From positions 1 through 64,000 of the forward strand of contig JAJEDY010000005.1 of assembly GCA_022821275.1 (NCBI GenBank): a DNA stretch of 64,000 bases, read 5' to 3'. Below the pieces are notes generated by a model that saw only the letters and a list, made by a program, of their open reading frames with translations, was not told the DNA's origin and ran no database searches. Numbering within the stretch: position 1 is the first letter of the stretch; each line of letters starts with the position of its first letter. The stretch is from Candidatus Latescibacterota bacterium (GTDB lineage: Bacteria > Latescibacterota > UBA2968). This document shows, in pieces, positions 1 through 12,280 of this stretch. Made by a program: the position numbers and the translations under genes.

Positions 1-41
1 ACTGTTTGGATCGCTTCGGCAATTTGAGGTATCTTATTCAT
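1..41 (-). CDS. 5' end of an unidentified gene, cut by the window edge
   Basis: An ATG on the minus strand at 41 opens a reading frame (MNKIPQIAEAIQT...) that runs off the left edge. A GGAG lies about 9 nt upstream. The short N-terminus would suit a transposase, but 13 residues cannot identify it. Just upstream (44-117) an imperfect inverted repeat (gaggcaa ... ttgcctc) could be an IS end or a hairpin. Only the start codon and ribosome binding site are supported. Confidence 0.35.
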   Translation of the reverse strand, partial: MNKIPQIAEAIQT

Positions 42-132
42 GAGAGGCAACTCCTGTGAAGTTCATAACTGTCCACTTAACAGCATGATACTTCACGGTT
101 TGCCTCTTCTCAACCCTTAACTTGATGCACAT

Positions 133-154
133 GGGGCGAAAGGTTTTTCGCCCC
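133..154. repeat. Short palindrome (ggggcgaa ... ttcgcccc)
   Basis: An inverted repeat of 8 bp arms with a short A/T loop, in the non-coding stretch 118-275 downstream of cas6. A related GC-rich palindrome (gggcgaggcatgcctcgccc) is at 37261-37280. Both are preceded or followed by gtag/ctac, so they look like members of one REP-like family. A terminator role is possible but there is no clear T run. Confidence 0.5.
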
Positions 155-275
155 TACGGTCACTTCACTCCGTTGCAGGCTACGCCTATGCGCTGAGCAC
201 TTGCAGCACAACGCCAGTAAAGCTGACCGCTACCTATTCGCCTTTTATCTGTGTCCATCTGCGTTCATATGCGGA

Positions 276-1220
276 TCATGCTTCTTCCTCCAAACCATAT
301 TGCCCCATCCCAAAACTGGTCAATTTGCCAACGTGCATCGGTACGCCCAGGGCCAGTAGCGGGTGGAATTTTGTCATGTCGCCTTCAAAGACGACATCTC
401 CTGTGAAACCGCTCACGCTCATGCGTCGGTTCTTGCGGTTTGAATACCGTTCCCATGTGCGCCAAGTCAAATTGTGGGATGTGGTTTGAACATGCTCTGC
501 CGCTGCGATATAGTCGGCATAATTTATATCTGGCGGTCCATCTGCGTGAAATGCGGCCAATGCCGAATACCGCCGCAATAGTCCGCGTACGAGTACGGGA
601 AAATCCAATCCCCGTTGCAACTGCCGGTCCGCTTTGAGTTGTGTGGGCGTTACAAAGGAGAGGCGAACTCGAGGGCCTATCTCTTTGTGCATCAGATCCT
701 GCGCTGTCAGATGGGGTACATCTTGTTGTAACATCTCGCTCGTCCCGTCGTACACTTCTTGCCATGTTCCATCCACATGCAAGGCTTCGCCTGAAATGAG
801 ATCGCATTTGCCGCGTCCGCGTCCAATACCCGTGTCTCCCATTCGCTGGAATGTGTAGATGAAATAGGGCATGTAATTCAATGCGCGGCCTATCAAAGTC
901 AAGCCAATGGCAAATTTATCGCCCGGCGCGTAATCGGTTTTGGTCTCCAGTGGTGGTTCGATCAGATATGGATGGGGTGCCTCGCTATACCCGCGAAAAA
1001 TGCCCTGTGCATTCTCCACGGGTGTGTCAAATATGTATGGGTACACGCATTGCGTCCGAACCAGACATCGCTCGCACTCGCCGTGTTGCACAATACAAAC
1101 CGCACGCTTAAATGACACACCAAAAGCCCCGCGAAATGTAGAGCCTTTATAGGGTGGCAGGTGTAGATTGCCTCGTGCTTTGAAGTGCAAGCGCATATAT
1201 GCGAATTCAAGTGTAAACAT
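276..1220 (-). CDS. cas6: Cas6-family CRISPR RNA processing endoribonuclease
   Basis: About 314 residues. Cas6 is the RAMP-fold nuclease that cuts pre-crRNA within repeats. The C-terminus has the glycine-rich RAMP loop (VGKLTSFGMGQYGL), and the N-terminal third has a Cys cluster (C-x2-C-x5-C, then PYIFDTP) typical of the large PF10040-type Cas6 group often found with type III systems. The ATG at 1220 follows AAAGGAG with ideal spacing, so it is preferred to the TTG one codon earlier. No other cas gene and no repeat-spacer array is visible in the window, so this is an orphan here. A sigma-54 type promoter lies 330 bp upstream, next to a CARF-containing sigma-54 activator gene on the same strand. 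The family call is strong; activity on a local array cannot be judged. Confidence 0.85.
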   Translation of the reverse strand: MFTLEFAYMRLHFKARGNLHLPPYKGSTFRGAFGVSFKRAVCIVQHGECERCLVRTQCVYPYIFDTPVENAQGIFRGYSEAPHPYLIEPPLETKTDYAPGDKFAIGLTLIGRALNYMPYFIYTFQRMGDTGIGRGRGKCDLISGEALHVDGTWQEVYDGTSEMLQQDVPHLTAQDLMHKEIGPRVRLSFVTPTQLKADRQLQRGLDFPVLVRGLLRRYSALAAFHADGPPDINYADYIAAAEHVQTTSHNLTWRTWERYSNRKNRRMSVSGFTGDVVFEGDMTKFHPLLALGVPMHVGKLTSFGMGQYGLEEEA

Positions 1221-1255
1221 CAATATCTCCTTTGTATGATGGAACTATAAAACTC

Positions 1256-1532
1256 TAAGCCATCACGCACAGCGCGCTATTCCGTCAACCGCTGTCCTCC
1301 TTGTTTGCATTCAACTTTGAAGGTCACTACATATCGTCTATTCACCTGAGCAATTTGCGCTGTGCCAGCCCCTCGGCGTTTGAGAGCGGCATTTTTTGCC
1401 TACTTTTTTTTGCTGAAAAAAAAAGTAGGTCGCCGCACGCCGCAGGCATGGCGCAGCCACATGCATAAAAAGAAAAATCTAAAAAAAGCTTGATACGTCG
1501 TTGTACCACAACACAAGAATTATGCACACTCC
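1256..1532 (-). repeat. Dispersed structured repeat, copy 1 (cas6 leader)
   Basis: This non-coding stretch shares blocks with 42386-42637: an outer block (aagccatc-cgcacagcgcg), a central block (ttgcgctgtgccagcccctc and following), a long hairpin (1399-1429), and a distal block ending gaattatgcacac. The hairpin stem is CCTAC/GTAGG plus an A/T run here and CCGAC/GTCGG in the other copy, which is a compensatory change. Short frames across it translate to junk such as KSRQKMPLSNAEG and are not genes. It would form most of the 5' leader of a cas6 transcript started at the sigma-54 promoter near 1534. Confidence 0.75.
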
Positions 1533-1543
1533 TCAATTATATA

Positions 1544-1560
1544 TGCAATCTGTGTGCCAA
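1544..1560 (-). promoter_or_regulatory. Sigma-54 (-24/-12) promoter for cas6
   Basis: The minus strand reads TTGGCACACAGATTGCA. It matches the sigma-54 consensus TGGCAC-N5-TTGCW with exact spacing (GG and GC separated by 10 nt). Transcription would start near 1534 and run toward cas6, giving a leader of about 310 nt. It sits just downstream of the regulator gene's terminator and 100-200 bp from three palindromes, the normal geometry for an activator that works through DNA looping. Confidence 0.75.
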
Positions 1561-1564
1561 ACAC

Positions 1565-1593
1565 AAAAAAATCTCCGATTTTTCCTCAGAGAT
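1565..1593 (-). terminator. Rho-independent terminator of the CARF-sigma-54 regulator gene
   Basis: Near-complementary arms 1571-1578 and 1586-1593 (ATCTCCGA with TCAGAGAT, 7 of 8 paired) are followed on the minus strand by a T run at 1570-1565. This separates the regulator transcript from the sigma-54 promoter that begins 5 nt further on. Confidence 0.6.
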
Positions 1594-1657
1594 CAAAAAA
1601 AACAACAGGTTGTGTGATATTTTTTGAAACAGGAAATGGACAGAAATATGTTCAACC

Positions 1658-1761
1658 GTGCAAATATACACACGTTTTTTATGCGAAAAAACAAAAAAAT
1701 AAATGCTATACCAGCATGTCGGGTCAATGTGCATTTTTGCACGCGGTGTGCAATTATACAC
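1658..1761. promoter_or_regulatory. Three palindromic candidate upstream activator sites
   Basis: Three 14-bp sites fit GTGCA-N4-TRCAC: 1658-1671 (GTGCAAATATACAC), 1729-1742 (GTGCATTTTTGCAC, a perfect palindrome) and 1748-1761 (GTGCAATTATACAC). The last two centres are 19 bp apart, close to two helical turns. All lie 100-200 bp upstream of the sigma-54 promoter, in the gap between the regulator stop codon and cas6. That the Fis-type HTH of the neighbouring regulator binds them is inference. Confidence 0.65.
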
Positions 1762-1779: not shown

Positions 1780-3453
1780 TTACGACGGCTTTCGAGTCAA
1801 GCCATATTCTTTGGCTCTTCTACTCAGCGTTGATCGGTCCATACTTAGCATCTTCGCGGCGTGTGCAATAATTCCCTGCTTTTGTGCCAGCGCGTCTTGA
1901 ATGATCTTTTTCTCAAATTGCGCCACCTGCTCGTCGAACGTACCGTTACCCGTGTCTAAATCTGTTGATTCAATGATCTGCCTGGATAAGTCTTCCTTGT
2001 GTACTCGAAACGCACTCTGAGGTGCGGCAATAACGATGCGCTCAACTACATTTTCAAGCTCGCGCACATTGCCCGGCCAGGTATAGTGACACAAGGCGTC
2101 TATGGCTGTGGCATCAAAGCCCACGACATTGCGTTTGTATTTCTGGTTAAACTGTTCACAAAATAAATCAATCAACTGGGGTATATCTTCACGTCGTTCT
2201 CGTAACGGTGGCATGTAAATGGTCAAAACATTGAGGCGATACAACAAGTCTTCTCGGAAAGTTCCTTCTTGAACCATGGTTTTCAAGTCGCGGTTGGTCG
2301 CTGCTACAATGCGTACATCAACATCTTCCTCTTGTTTATCACTACCAACAGCACGCACTTTATTTTCTTGTAATACGCGCAATAGTTTCGCCTGCCCTTC
2401 AGATGATAAGTCTCCGACTTCATCGAGGAAAAGAGTGCCGCCATTAGCTGCGCGAAAAGCACCCTTACGCGGCCCGGCTTGTCCGGTATAAGCACCTTTA
2501 ACTGCACCAAATAGTTCTACATCCAAAAGCTCACTCGGCATTGCACTGCAGTTAATCGGTATGAATGGTTGATCTTTTCTTATACTCTGCTCATGCAGTG
2601 CTTCAACTGCCCGTTCTTTACCTGTTCCCGTTTCACCCAAAATCAGCACGGTTGCACCATCTGCATCAGCAGCTTGTCGAATCTGATCTTTGACTTTCTG
2701 CATTGCAAAACCATTTCCGATCAAGCCACCAGCATTGCCCGATGTTTCTCTCAGTCGCTTGTTCTCTGCTCTTAGACGCGGAACACGCCTCACTTCTGCT
2801 TGTGTTTTCTGTAGAATTCGATCATAACTTTCATCGTCGAATACGGATATATCTCTTACGGATACATAGGGCAATTCAGCCAATTCAATACGCACATCAG
2901 CAGTAGAAATTTTTTGTCCGTCTGATGTACGAATTTGCGCTTCGCGGACTGGTGGAAAGAAAAAATCGCGATTCATTTCAATCTCTGGCGGCGTGACCAG
3001 CACATGATACAGGCGGTCTTGTGGGCGACCAAAAAATTGAATAGCAGCTCCGAGCAAATATCCCATTGACTTACGGCCGCCTGCAAGCGAGCAGTGTAAG
3101 GCGACATGGGCATCCTTAGTCCAATCCTCAATCCATCGGAAAAGTTGGTCCCTGGCCAGGCGATTATCTTCCGAGGTGCGGATATCGTCTAAGAAATCGC
3201 CTTCAGCATCTTCAAATACGCGGATATGATCGGCGTCGAAAGCGACTGTATTGGGATCGATATTGTAATCCGACAGCATTTTTTCAAATCGACCTTCGTC
3301 CAAAAGGCGTTTCTGACAGGTTTTTTGTCCTACTGTTGTCGTTATCACAAATACTTCATCAATGAGCACGCCGTGGTCGATACGCAATGCCCAGAAGGTT
3401 TCTGTCATAACTTGTGGTGTGTTGCCAACTACAGCGACCAATTTGTGTTGCAT
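1780..3453 (-). CDS. CARF-domain sigma-54 transcription activator (NE0113-type CARF / AAA+ / Fis HTH)
   Basis: About 557 residues in three parts. Residues 1-200 match the CRISPR-associated NE0113 family, a CARF Rossmann domain that senses cyclic oligonucleotides: VVGNTPQVMTETFWAL, a DIRTSEDN segment, SLAGGRKSMG and FFGRPQDRLYHVLV. A linker leads to a sigma-54 interaction AAA+ module: Walker A GETGTGKE (about 273-280), a GAYTGQ loop in place of GAFTGA (about 320-325), Walker B GGTLFLDEVGD, and an arginine-finger region FREDLLYRLNV. The C-terminus is a Fis-type HTH (AAKMLSMDRSTLSRRAKEYGL). The ATG at 3453 has AAGAGGA 7 nt upstream and is preferred to the ATG at 3474. RtcR has the same general architecture and controls RNA repair genes. 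Here the neighbour is cas6, with a -24/-12 promoter and palindromic sites between the genes. The architecture is clear; ligand and targets are inferred. Confidence 0.9.
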   Translation of the reverse strand: MQHKLVAVVGNTPQVMTETFWALRIDHGVLIDEVFVITTTVGQKTCQKRLLDEGRFEKMLSDYNIDPNTVAFDADHIRVFEDAEGDFLDDIRTSEDNRLARDQLFRWIEDWTKDAHVALHCSLAGGRKSMGYLLGAAIQFFGRPQDRLYHVLVTPPEIEMNRDFFFPPVREAQIRTSDGQKISTADVRIELAELPYVSVRDISVFDDESYDRILQKTQAEVRRVPRLRAENKRLRETSGNAGGLIGNGFAMQKVKDQIRQAADADGATVLILGETGTGKERAVEALHEQSIRKDQPFIPINCSAMPSELLDVELFGAVKGAYTGQAGPRKGAFRAANGGTLFLDEVGDLSSEGQAKLLRVLQENKVRAVGSDKQEEDVDVRIVAATNRDLKTMVQEGTFREDLLYRLNVLTIYMPPLRERREDIPQLIDLFCEQFNQKYKRNVVGFDATAIDALCHYTWPGNVRELENVVERIVIAAPQSAFRVHKEDLSRQIIESTDLDTGNGTFDEQVAQFEKKIIQDALAQKQGIIAHAAKMLSMDRSTLSRRAKEYGLTRKPS

Positions 3454-3516
3454 ATCGTTATCCTCTTGAGACATCTCATTGACTTTTGTAGTATAACACC
3501 GTACTCTTAAAATTTC

Positions 3517-5873: not shown

Positions 5874-5889
5874 TCTTTAGTGGTTGTCC

Positions 5890-6990
5890 ATGTATCTGAC
5901 CTATAAATACAAGCTGTATAGTCGCTGTGATCGCAATAAGTATCTCCACCAAGATATAGACGCCTTTGCTGGTGTGTATAATCACTTCATTGCCCTGCAC
6001 AAGCGGTACTATCGCATGTTCGGCAAGTACCCGGGCAAGTTCACATTGATCAAGCATTTGACAAAGCTGAAAAAGACCGCCCGCTTTGCTCATTGGTGCT
6101 TGTTGCCGTCTCAGGCATTGCAGAATGTGATCGAGCGCATAGACTTTGGCTATCAGAAGTTCTTTGCCAAAGACAACAAGCGACCGCCCACATTTCGGTC
6201 TCGCTTTCGGTACCTGTCCTATACACTCAAACAGGCTGGATACAAATTCCTTGACGGCAACAAGGTGCGTATAGGCAAGCGAGTCTTCAGATACCACAAA
6301 AGCAGAGACTTCGATACAGACAACATTAAGACGGTCACAATCAAGCGTGACCGCGCAGGTGATTTGTGGCTGTGTGTTGTTGCTCTGGCAGAAGGTATCA
6401 AGCAGGACATTGCCAAGACGGGTAAAACCGCAGGCTTTGACTTCGGCTTGAAAACATACCTCTTTGCCAGTGACGGCACACAAATACAATCGCCTTTGTT
6501 CTTTTCTCGTAATTCTCGTAAGGTCAAGCAAGCCAGCCGTAACCTGTCTCGCAAGCAGAAGGGCAGCAACAACCGCCACAGAGCAAGATTAACTCTTGCC
6601 AGGGTGCATAGGCGTGTAGCCAACCAGAGGCGAGAATACCACTGGTGGCTTGCCCACCACCTTTGCAAGCAATATGACGTTATGTGCTTTGAAAAGCTCA
6701 ATATCAAAGCCATGCAAAGGCTATGGGGCAGGAAAATTAGTGACCTCGGCTTCTTTGACTTCTTGGCCACACTCAAGTATGTCGCACAAAAGACGGGCAA
6801 AAAGGTTGTGCAACTTAAACAATGGTTGCCTACTTCTAAGACCTGCTCCGCTTGTGGCGCGGTCAAAGAAGACCTTGAACTACGAGACAGAACATTCCGT
6901 TGCGATTGTGGTTTCGTCATAGACAGAGACCTCAACGCAGCAATAAACATTCACAGGTGGGGACATCCACCTTTGGAGAAGGCGACGTAA
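5890..6990 (+). CDS. tnpB: TnpB RNA-guided nuclease (IS605-type)
   Basis: 366 residues from ATG 5890 (a TTG at 5884 is also in frame). The RuvC triad is complete: Asp184 in GFDFGLKTY, Glu268 in CFEKLNIK and Asp347 in DRDLNAA. The four-Cys zinc finger CSACG ... CDCG lies between the last two. The length is usual for compact TnpB. TnpB proteins use an RNA from the element's right end to cut DNA next to a target motif and so retain the IS. The gene appears intact although tnpA is missing. Its 5' side carries a long pseudoknot and no clear ribosome binding site. Confidence 0.9.
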   Translation: MYLTYKYKLYSRCDRNKYLHQDIDAFAGVYNHFIALHKRYYRMFGKYPGKFTLIKHLTKLKKTARFAHWCLLPSQALQNVIERIDFGYQKFFAKDNKRPPTFRSRFRYLSYTLKQAGYKFLDGNKVRIGKRVFRYHKSRDFDTDNIKTVTIKRDRAGDLWLCVVALAEGIKQDIAKTGKTAGFDFGLKTYLFASDGTQIQSPLFFSRNSRKVKQASRNLSRKQKGSNNRHRARLTLARVHRRVANQRREYHWWLAHHLCKQYDVMCFEKLNIKAMQRLWGRKISDLGFFDFLATLKYVAQKTGKKVVQLKQWLPTSKTCSACGAVKEDLELRDRTFRCDCGFVIDRDLNAAINIHRWGHPPLEKAT

Positions 6991-11996: not shown

Positions 11997-12085
11997 AATA
12001 CACACTCTTGCAAAAGGTTAGAAATTTGCGACCCACCAAAACCTGAGGAAATGCCGCTAATCCTCACGATACTGTTCCCATAGAA

Positions 12086-12280
12086 CAATGCCCAGAAGGT
12101 TTCTGTCATAACTTGCGGTGTGTTGCCAATTACAGCGACCAGTTTGTGTTTCATATTGTTATCCTCTTGAGACATTCCATTGACTTTTATAGTATAACAC
12201 CGTACTCTTAAAATTTCAATCTATGACTGTGACTGTCTGAAATACGTCCCAGTGGAGAGAAAAACAGAAATCCGCTCGGC
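12086..12280 (-). pseudogene. Truncated second copy of the CARF-sigma-54 gene 5' end and its upstream region
   Basis: Start context and first codons (MKHKLVAVIGNTPQVMTETFWAL, ATG at 12154, aagagga upstream) repeat those of the intact gene, then homology stops at 12086. The non-coding side continues colinear with 3454-3700 to about 12280, but without the 142-bp MITE. About 70 nt of coding sequence is left, so it is non-functional. It marks a duplication of this locus. Confidence 0.8.

What the first reader, a model, noticed from the sequence alone, without database searches (positions are those of the whole stretch)
1544..1761. Complete sigma-54 control region for cas6: terminator, -24/-12 promoter and three palindromic enhancer sites
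Seen: TGGCAC-N5-TTGCA with exact spacing facing cas6, a terminator for the regulator 5 nt away, and three GTGCA-N4-TRCAC palindromes 100-200 bp upstream, two of them 19 bp apart. This is the textbook geometry for a bacterial enhancer-binding protein, and the gene for one lies directly beside it. It predicts that cas6 is switched on by the CARF activator.
Basis: partly seen in the sequence, partly recalled or inferred. Interest (0 to 1): 0.9.

Follow-up and report, generated by a model that had tools for sequence, protein, structure and literature searches.

The report
CRISPR alarm wired to sigma-54 switch
A protein that looks able to sense the chemical alarm of one CRISPR immune system appears to switch on CRISPR genes through a tightly controlled (sigma-54) promoter; the same wiring recurs in related bacteria and in a second bacterial group, including in front of the genes that record new infections.

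Summary
A consensus sigma-54 promoter (1559-1544, minus strand), a terminator-like hairpin 5 nt upstream (1594-1570) and three GTGYA-N4-TGCAC dyads (1658-1671, 1729-1742, 1748-1761) lie between a CARF(NE0113)-AAA+(sigma-54 activator)-Fis regulator and cas6 in a Latescibacterota MAG. Shuffles never reproduce the dyad set (0/2000); none of 30 other sigma-54 promoters scanned in the genome has one.
Promoter and terminator recur in two relatives, all three dyads in one. A third relative lost both the regulator's AAA+ core and the whole control region.
It goes further. The same dyad pair plus a -24/-12 element precedes CAPP-cas1-cas2 in two relatives and a DUF1232/cmr operon in another. In five Kryptonia genomes a CARF-bEBP sits between type III-A and I-B operons with its own paired dyads and a sigma-54-like promoter; in one, both dyads and the HTH changed together.
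Best reading: a cyclic-oligoadenylate-sensing enhancer-binding protein that induces cas operons (ligand and activation inferred, not shown).
Caveats: no Cas10 or array found in the window's genome; loop 1 is GAYTGQ, not GAFTGA; G031 has altered cas6 dyads.

The parts
276..1223 (-). cas6 (315 aa)
   Evidence: PF10040 E=6.6e-19; 91-93% identical in G030, G031, G037; dN/dS about 0.09-0.13 from the values
1224..1533 (-). Predicted untranslated leader of cas6, about 310 nt; not conserved in relatives, carries a hairpin CCTACTTTTTTTTTCAGCAAAAAAAAGTAGG at about 1399-1430
   Evidence: Sequence; in G037 promoter and cas6 ATG (L025:16639) are only about 50 nt apart; no Rfam match
1544..1559 (-). Sigma-54 promoter TGGCACACAGATTGCA; predicted transcription start about 1533-1534
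   Evidence: Unique in window; TGGCACGCAACTTGCA at the same place in G031 and G037
1570..1594 (-). Terminator-like hairpin between dyads and promoter
   Evidence: conserved in G031 and G037
1658..1671 (.). Dyad (predicted enhancer site) GTGCAAATATACAC
   Evidence: same site in G037
1729..1742 (.). Dyad (predicted enhancer site) GTGCATTTTTGCAC
   Evidence: same site in G037 with one change
1748..1761 (.). Dyad (predicted enhancer site) GTGCAATTATACAC, 19 bp from its neighbour
   Evidence: same site in G037
1780..3474 (-). CARF(NE0113)-AAA+(sigma-54 activator)-Fis HTH regulator, 564 aa
   Evidence: PF09623, PF00158, PF02954 over cut-off; TIGR02584 over cut-off
2851..3420 (-). CARF domain
   Evidence: PF09623 E=6.9e-39; predicted fold closest to cOA-binding CARF domains
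2218..2721 (-). Sigma-54 interaction AAA+ domain, loop 1 GAYTGQ
   Evidence: PF00158 E=2.6e-63; motif
1804..1926 (-). Fis-type HTH
   Evidence: PF02954 E=6.2e-11

Best explanation
The region is an inducible sigma-54 control module. The neighbouring CARF-AAA+-HTH protein binds the GTGYA-N4-TGCAC dyads as a bacterial enhancer-binding protein (bEBP). When its CARF domain is occupied by a cyclic oligoadenylate made by an activated Cas10, it hydrolyses ATP and opens sigma-54 polymerase at the -24/-12 promoter. That raises cas6 and whatever shares its operon: in relatives a type III effector operon and, through further copies of the module, a DUF1232/cmr operon and CAPP-cas1-cas2. The terminator keeps regulator read-through out of the target operon. 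Shown by sequence and comparison: promoter, dyads, regulator architecture, conservation, co-loss, and that the dyad pair plus promoter occurs only at cas loci in the genus. Inferred: binding, activation rather than repression, and cOA as the ligand.
For: Consensus promoter and dyads beyond chance; rpoN present and sigma-54 promoters enriched 40 to 4 over a reversed control; at least 7 of 19 other bEBP genes of the genome have such a promoter within 500 bp downstream on the same strand (searches compared); conservation in G031 and G037; joint loss of AAA+ core and control region in G030; same module before CAPP-cas1-cas2 in G031 and G036 and before DUF1232/cmr in G037; CARF-bEBP, paired dyads and sigma-54-like promoter between III-A and I-B operons in five Kryptonia genomes, with compensatory dyad change and HTH change in G102; CARF closest to cOA-binding CARFs; no sigma-70-like promoter found on the cas6 strand.
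Against: No Cas10, Csm3 or CRISPR repeat found in the window's own genome. Loop 1 is GAYTGQ in G000/G031 and NAFTNA in G037 instead of GAFTGA. G031's cas6 dyads differ and are not significant on their own, while its adaptation dyads are of the G000 type. -12 GC is intact in only two of five Kryptonia promoters. Two other CARF-bEBPs (G077, G176) show no clear sigma-54 target. All evidence is sequence-based.
Confidence: 0.75

Rival explanations
1. Same wiring, different signal: the regulator activates cas operons through sigma-54, but its CARF senses something other than cyclic oligoadenylate (RNA ends as in RtcR, or a protein), or mainly cleaves cOA as a ring nuclease so that the response is limited in time.
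For: The only studied CARF-bEBP, RtcR, is not activated by cOA (PMC9650030). NCBIfam names the NE0113 family a ring nuclease and the nearest folds include ring nucleases. The window genome shows no Cas10.
Against: The S-AGGRK motif is conserved, whereas RtcR mostly lacks the positive residue there (PMC4012209); the complete loci in G031, G037 and Kryptonia hold Cas10 beside the regulator.
Confidence: 0.15
2. A real sigma-54 promoter, but driven by another of the genome's bEBPs; the CARF protein no longer activates (its loop 1 is altered) or acts as a repressor bound at the dyads.
For: G000 has about 20 other bEBP genes; loop 1 GAYTGQ / NAFTNA is atypical while the other bEBPs sampled in this genome have GAFTGA or GAFTDA.
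Against: The dyads are absent at 30 other sigma-54 promoters of the genome; AAA+ core and control region were lost together in G030; in Kryptonia G102 dyads changed together with the HTH of the neighbouring CARF-bEBP.
Confidence: 0.07
3. In the window's genome the locus is a relic: the control region is still readable, but the effector operon and array are gone and cas6 induction no longer matters.
For: No Cas10, Csm3 or CRISPR repeat in the assembly; the CAPP match begins at residue 262 near the end of contig C14; unrelated sequence follows cas6.
Against: Both breaks lie at contig ends, so a gap is possible; cas6 and the regulator show purifying selection against G031 (dN/dS about 0.13 and 0.25), though this averages over both lineages; promoter and dyads are intact.
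Confidence: 0.4

Closest known systems
RtcR (CARF-AAA+-HTH activator of rtcBA; PMC9650030, PMC4012209), including RtcR homologues beside R-M systems and CoCoNuTs (PMC4012209, PMC11090510)
   Same: CARF domain in front of an NtrC-type AAA+ and HTH; sigma-54 target promoter with upstream activator sites
   Different: CARF is of the NE0113 CRISPR family, no RtcR N-terminal family match and RtcR model far below cut-off; neighbours are cas6 and type III or I-B operons; S-AGGRK motif kept; cOA plausible as ligand, whereas RtcR does not respond to cOA
Csa3 (archaeal CARF-wHTH regulators of cas1/cas2 and interference genes; PMC8844856, PMC8699464, PMC10013973)
   Same: CARF-controlled transcription regulation of CRISPR genes, adaptation genes included
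   Different: Csa3 has a winged HTH without AAA+; here control goes through a bacterial sigma-54 promoter and ATP hydrolysis
CalpL-CalpT-CalpS (cA4-triggered release of a sigma factor; described in PMC11229360)
   Same: Type III second messenger coupled to a bacterial sigma factor
   Different: Calp frees an anti-sigma-bound sigma factor by proteolysis; here the sensor would itself be the sigma-54 activator and the targets are cas operons
Type I-B/III-A 'fusion' loci of Ca. Kryptonia (PMC4737851)
   Same: The same loci; a CARF-bEBP with dyads and a sigma-54-like promoter lies at the III-A/I-B junction
   Different: The passages searched in that paper mention no sigma factor or CRISPR regulator
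NE0113-family CARF proteins beside cas6 in many phyla
   Same: Homologous CARF domain, same place next to cas6
   Different: Those have an unrelated C-terminal part of about 170 residues instead of AAA+ and Fis HTH

Membership tests
Sigma-54 (-24/-12) promoter | GG-N10-GC within the TGGCAC-N5-TTGCW consensus | tested here: met
   1559-1544, 11 of 12 consensus bases
Sigma-54 (-24/-12) promoter | rpoN in the genome | tested here: met
   PF04552 E=8.8e-56
Sigma-54 (-24/-12) promoter | Transcription depends on sigma-54 | not testable with these tools
   Needs transcript mapping or in vitro transcription
Bacterial enhancer-binding protein | Sigma-54 interaction AAA+ domain with Walker motifs and C-terminal Fis HTH | tested here: met
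   PF00158 and PF02954; GETGTGKE and FLDE motifs
Bacterial enhancer-binding protein | GAFTGA loop contacting sigma-54 | tested here: inconclusive
   GAYTGQ in G000 and G031, NAFTNA in G037, GAFTGA or GAYTGA in Kryptonia; effect of the changes unknown
RtcR | RtcR-family N-terminal domain / full-length RtcR model over cut-off | tested here: not met
   No RtcR-domain hit in Pfam; NF038308 295.5 bits against cut-off 650, aligned only over residues 230-528
RtcR | Beside rtcBA | tested here: not met
   Neighbours are cas6, csm, cmr or type I-B genes
NE0113 CARF family | TIGR02584 / PF09623 over curated cut-off | tested here: met
   181.3 bits against 80.65; 134.2 against 23
cOA-responsive CARF protein | CARF fold with the S-AGGRK-type motif of cOA-binding relatives | tested here: met
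   Conserved motif; top fold matches are Cad1 and ring-nuclease CARFs
cOA-responsive CARF protein | Binding of or response to cyclic oligoadenylate | not testable with these tools
   Needs binding or transcription assay
Type III CRISPR-Cas locus (window genome) | Cas10 present | tested here: not met
   No Cas10 by protein or PF22335 search; it is present in G031 and the other complete loci

The most novel reading that the evidence does not exclude
A cyclic-oligoadenylate-gated sigma-54 enhancer-binding protein is the induction switch of whole CRISPR-Cas programmes: recognition of phage RNA by type III turns on crRNA processing, effector genes, the CAPP-cas1-cas2 adaptation operon and, in Kryptonia, a separate type I-B system, so spacer acquisition would be induced by an infection that is already recognised.
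Probability: 0.5. Interest if true: 0.85.

Novelty: new variant of a known kind. Interest (0 to 1): 0.77.

Why it matters
If right, bacteria have a tight on/off switch for CRISPR (sigma-54 promoters have very little basal activity, general knowledge) driven by CRISPR's own second messenger. It would tie interference to adaptation, give a reason for the joined type III-A and I-B loci of Kryptonia, and be a CARF-bEBP that answers cOA where RtcR does not. The operator sites and promoters are defined well enough to test in vitro at once.

Tried and rejected
Among 30 other canonical sigma-54 promoters of G000 no second dyad-bearing one was found. HTH/dyad covariation in G031 looked neat at cas6 (AGGCA-N4-TGCCT), but its adaptation promoter keeps GTGCA dyads, so I do not count it. 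Independent origin of the Latescibacterota and Kryptonia CARF-bEBPs was tested and is not established (AU test of one clade p=0.19). CARF-bEBPs in G077 and G176 gave no clear sigma-54 target. A perfect -24/-12 match inside a spacer of the G031 array (L023:16254, minus strand) is treated as chance. No Rfam family in the leader. The 2020 CARF classification paper is not in the library, so a mention of such fusions there cannot be excluded.

Full report
What is there. The window begins at the left edge of contig C84 of a genome with 101 contigs, 97.5% complete; related records are Latescibacterota MAGs. On the minus strand lie a 564-aa regulator (3474-1780), a 556-bp intergenic region and cas6 (1223-276). 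The regulator has a CARF domain of the CRISPR NE0113 family (PF09623; TIGR02584 over its cut-off), a sigma-54 activator AAA+ domain and a Fis-type HTH. In order of transcription the intergenic region holds dyads at 1761-1748, 1742-1729 and 1671-1658, a terminator-like hairpin (1594-1570) and TGGCACACAGATTGCA (1559-1544).

Chance. The promoter pattern is expected 0.04 times in 64 kb and GTGCA-N4-TRCAC 0.20 times. A test that does not presuppose the sequence, the largest set of mutually similar 5-N4-5 dyads, reached the observed three in 0 of 2000 shuffles for G000 and for G037. The genome uses sigma-54: rpoN is present and the canonical pattern occurs 40 times against 4 for the reversed control. 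Comparing, at least seven of 19 other bEBP genes have such a promoter within 500 bp downstream on the same strand (on C97, C46, C81, C73, C63, C78 and C67), so 'regulator followed by a sigma-54 promoter' is a usual layout here. Of 30 other canonical sigma-54 promoters examined, none has a comparable dyad set.

Relatives with the same regulator. G031 (L023) has regulator, control region, cas6, cas10, csm2-5, a second CARF protein and a CRISPR array in one run. G037 (L025, L026, L176; one contig) has regulator, control region, cas6, a second control region, DUF1232, a cmr-type operon, a csm operon and an array. In both the promoter is TGGCACGCAACTTGCA, and terminator and flanks are nearly identical to G000, while the rest of the leader is unrelated. 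G037 has three dyads at -201, -182 and -111 (G000: -202, -183, -112). G031 has altered dyads (GTGCATTTCTGCCT at -133, AGGCAAAAATGCCT at -112) and an altered, shorter HTH. In G030 (L024) one deletion removed the AAA+ core of the regulator in frame and a second removed dyads, terminator and promoter, leaving CARF stub, cas6 and csm as a run. Joint loss of the sigma-54 engine and the sigma-54 promoter is what one expects if they work together; it is a single case in a MAG.

Other targets. A pattern for two adjacent dyads gives seven hits in 15 genomes of the family, against two for the reversed control. Two (G031:C275, G025) look like coding sequence without a sigma-54 promoter. The other five are cas-linked: G000 cas6; G037 cas6; G037 before DUF1232/cmr (promoter TGGCACGCGGATTGCA, dyads at -133 and -113); and G031 and G036 just behind the CRISPR array, before a TPR-AEP primase (CAPP-like, PF22548), cas1 and cas2 (promoters TGGCACGCTTCTTGCT and TGGCACGCTTTTTGCA, dyads at -141/-121 and -139/-119, again with a hairpin between dyads and promoter). 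So the module stands before crRNA-processing and effector genes and before adaptation genes. The G037 copy of CAPP lacks it, and G036 has the adaptation module but no PF09623 hit.

A second group. In Ca. Kryptonium thompsonii (L072) a CARF-bEBP with an intact GAFTGA loop follows a csm operon and precedes a type I-B operon; four more genomes of that group (G149, G156, G112, G102) show a CARF-bEBP in the same kind of place, with the neighbouring operons as far as their contigs reach. Between regulator and the next operon lie two dyads (consensus GCCGA-N4-TCGGC) 31 bp apart, 32 in G102, and a conserved TTGGCAYA...TTTG promoter whose -12 GC is intact in two of five. In G102 the recognition helix differs (IPRTTLYDKIKK for LKRSTLQ-KMKK) and both dyads have changed to GTYGG-N4-CCGAC, which keeps the palindrome. 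That is the strongest sign that the dyads are the HTH's sites. PMC4737851 described these loci as a I-B/III-A fusion; the passages searched mention no CRISPR regulator. Whether the two groups of CARF-bEBPs arose once or twice is open (AU p=0.19).

Ligand. The CARF model (pLDDT 89.5) best matches CARF domains of Cad1 and the ring nucleases Sis0455 and Sso2081, several solved with cyclic oligoadenylates; sequence profiles agree. The S-AGGRK motif is conserved. PMC4012209 notes that RtcR mostly lacks the positive residue there, and PMC9650030 shows that RtcR is not activated by cOA. With Cas10 beside the regulator in complete loci, cOA is the likely signal; this is inference.

How it most likely works. 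At rest the regulator is made at some low level, its transcript is stopped by the terminator, and the target operon is silent for lack of an activated bEBP (general property of sigma-54, established knowledge). On target recognition Cas10 makes cOA, cOA binds the CARF, the AAA+ ring assembles at the dyads, and looping brings it to sigma-54 polymerase 110-200 bp away. Some basal amount of effector is needed to start this loop; a sigma-70-like TTGACA box in front of CAPP in G031, G036 and G037 would give basal expression of the adaptation genes.

What weakens it. The window's genome shows no Cas10, Csm3 or array, and its CAPP match starts at residue 262 near a contig end: relic or assembly gap. 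Loop 1 is GAYTGQ, and NAFTNA in G037, which may alter sigma-54 contact. The G031 cas6 dyads are not significant alone. Nothing here measures binding or transcription.

Placement. It works like RtcR but fails RtcR membership. It is an NE0113-family CARF-bEBP wired to cas operons, which I did not find described in the searchable literature (the 2020 CARF survey was not held). I rate it a new variant of a known kind.

Noticed in passing
window 12068-12217 and 3385-3516: The first 36 codons of the regulator plus upstream sequence are duplicated (132 nt, 94% identical) 8.7 kb away, beside genes whose G031 relative (L023:1010-1942) lies a few kb upstream of the regulator; looks like an insertion or rearrangement at the regulator's start.
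   Followed up: partly
window 1-275: Downstream of cas6 the sequence is unrelated to the csm operons of relatives and the contig ends within the start of another reading frame (MNKIPQIAEAIQT...).
   Followed up: partly
window 5884-6990: A 368-aa frame with two CxxC pairs that looks like a TnpB-type protein (judged from the sequence only).
   Followed up: no
L025:14470-16356: The G037 regulator is a mosaic: CARF and HTH close to G000, AAA+ part strongly diverged with loop 1 NAFTNA; modules appear to be exchanged.
   Followed up: partly
L027:19305-19967: G046, from another family of the class, has cas6 (45%) followed by a CARF frame 81% identical to the window's CARF but without AAA+; suggests transfer between families, though the contig ends there.
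   Followed up: partly
L025:17800-18149 and L176:8045-8554: Two DUF1232-like proteins lie at the type III locus of G037, the first right behind a dyad-plus-sigma-54 promoter; role unknown.
   Followed up: no
L212:9308-11164 and L213:8526-10334: Two further NE0113 CARF-bEBP fusions (G176 beside a type III locus and array, G077 outside any recognised cas locus) without a clear sigma-54 target promoter nearby.
   Followed up: partly
L023:16239-16254: A perfect -24/-12 sigma-54 sequence inside a spacer of the G031 CRISPR array, minus strand; probably chance.
   Followed up: no
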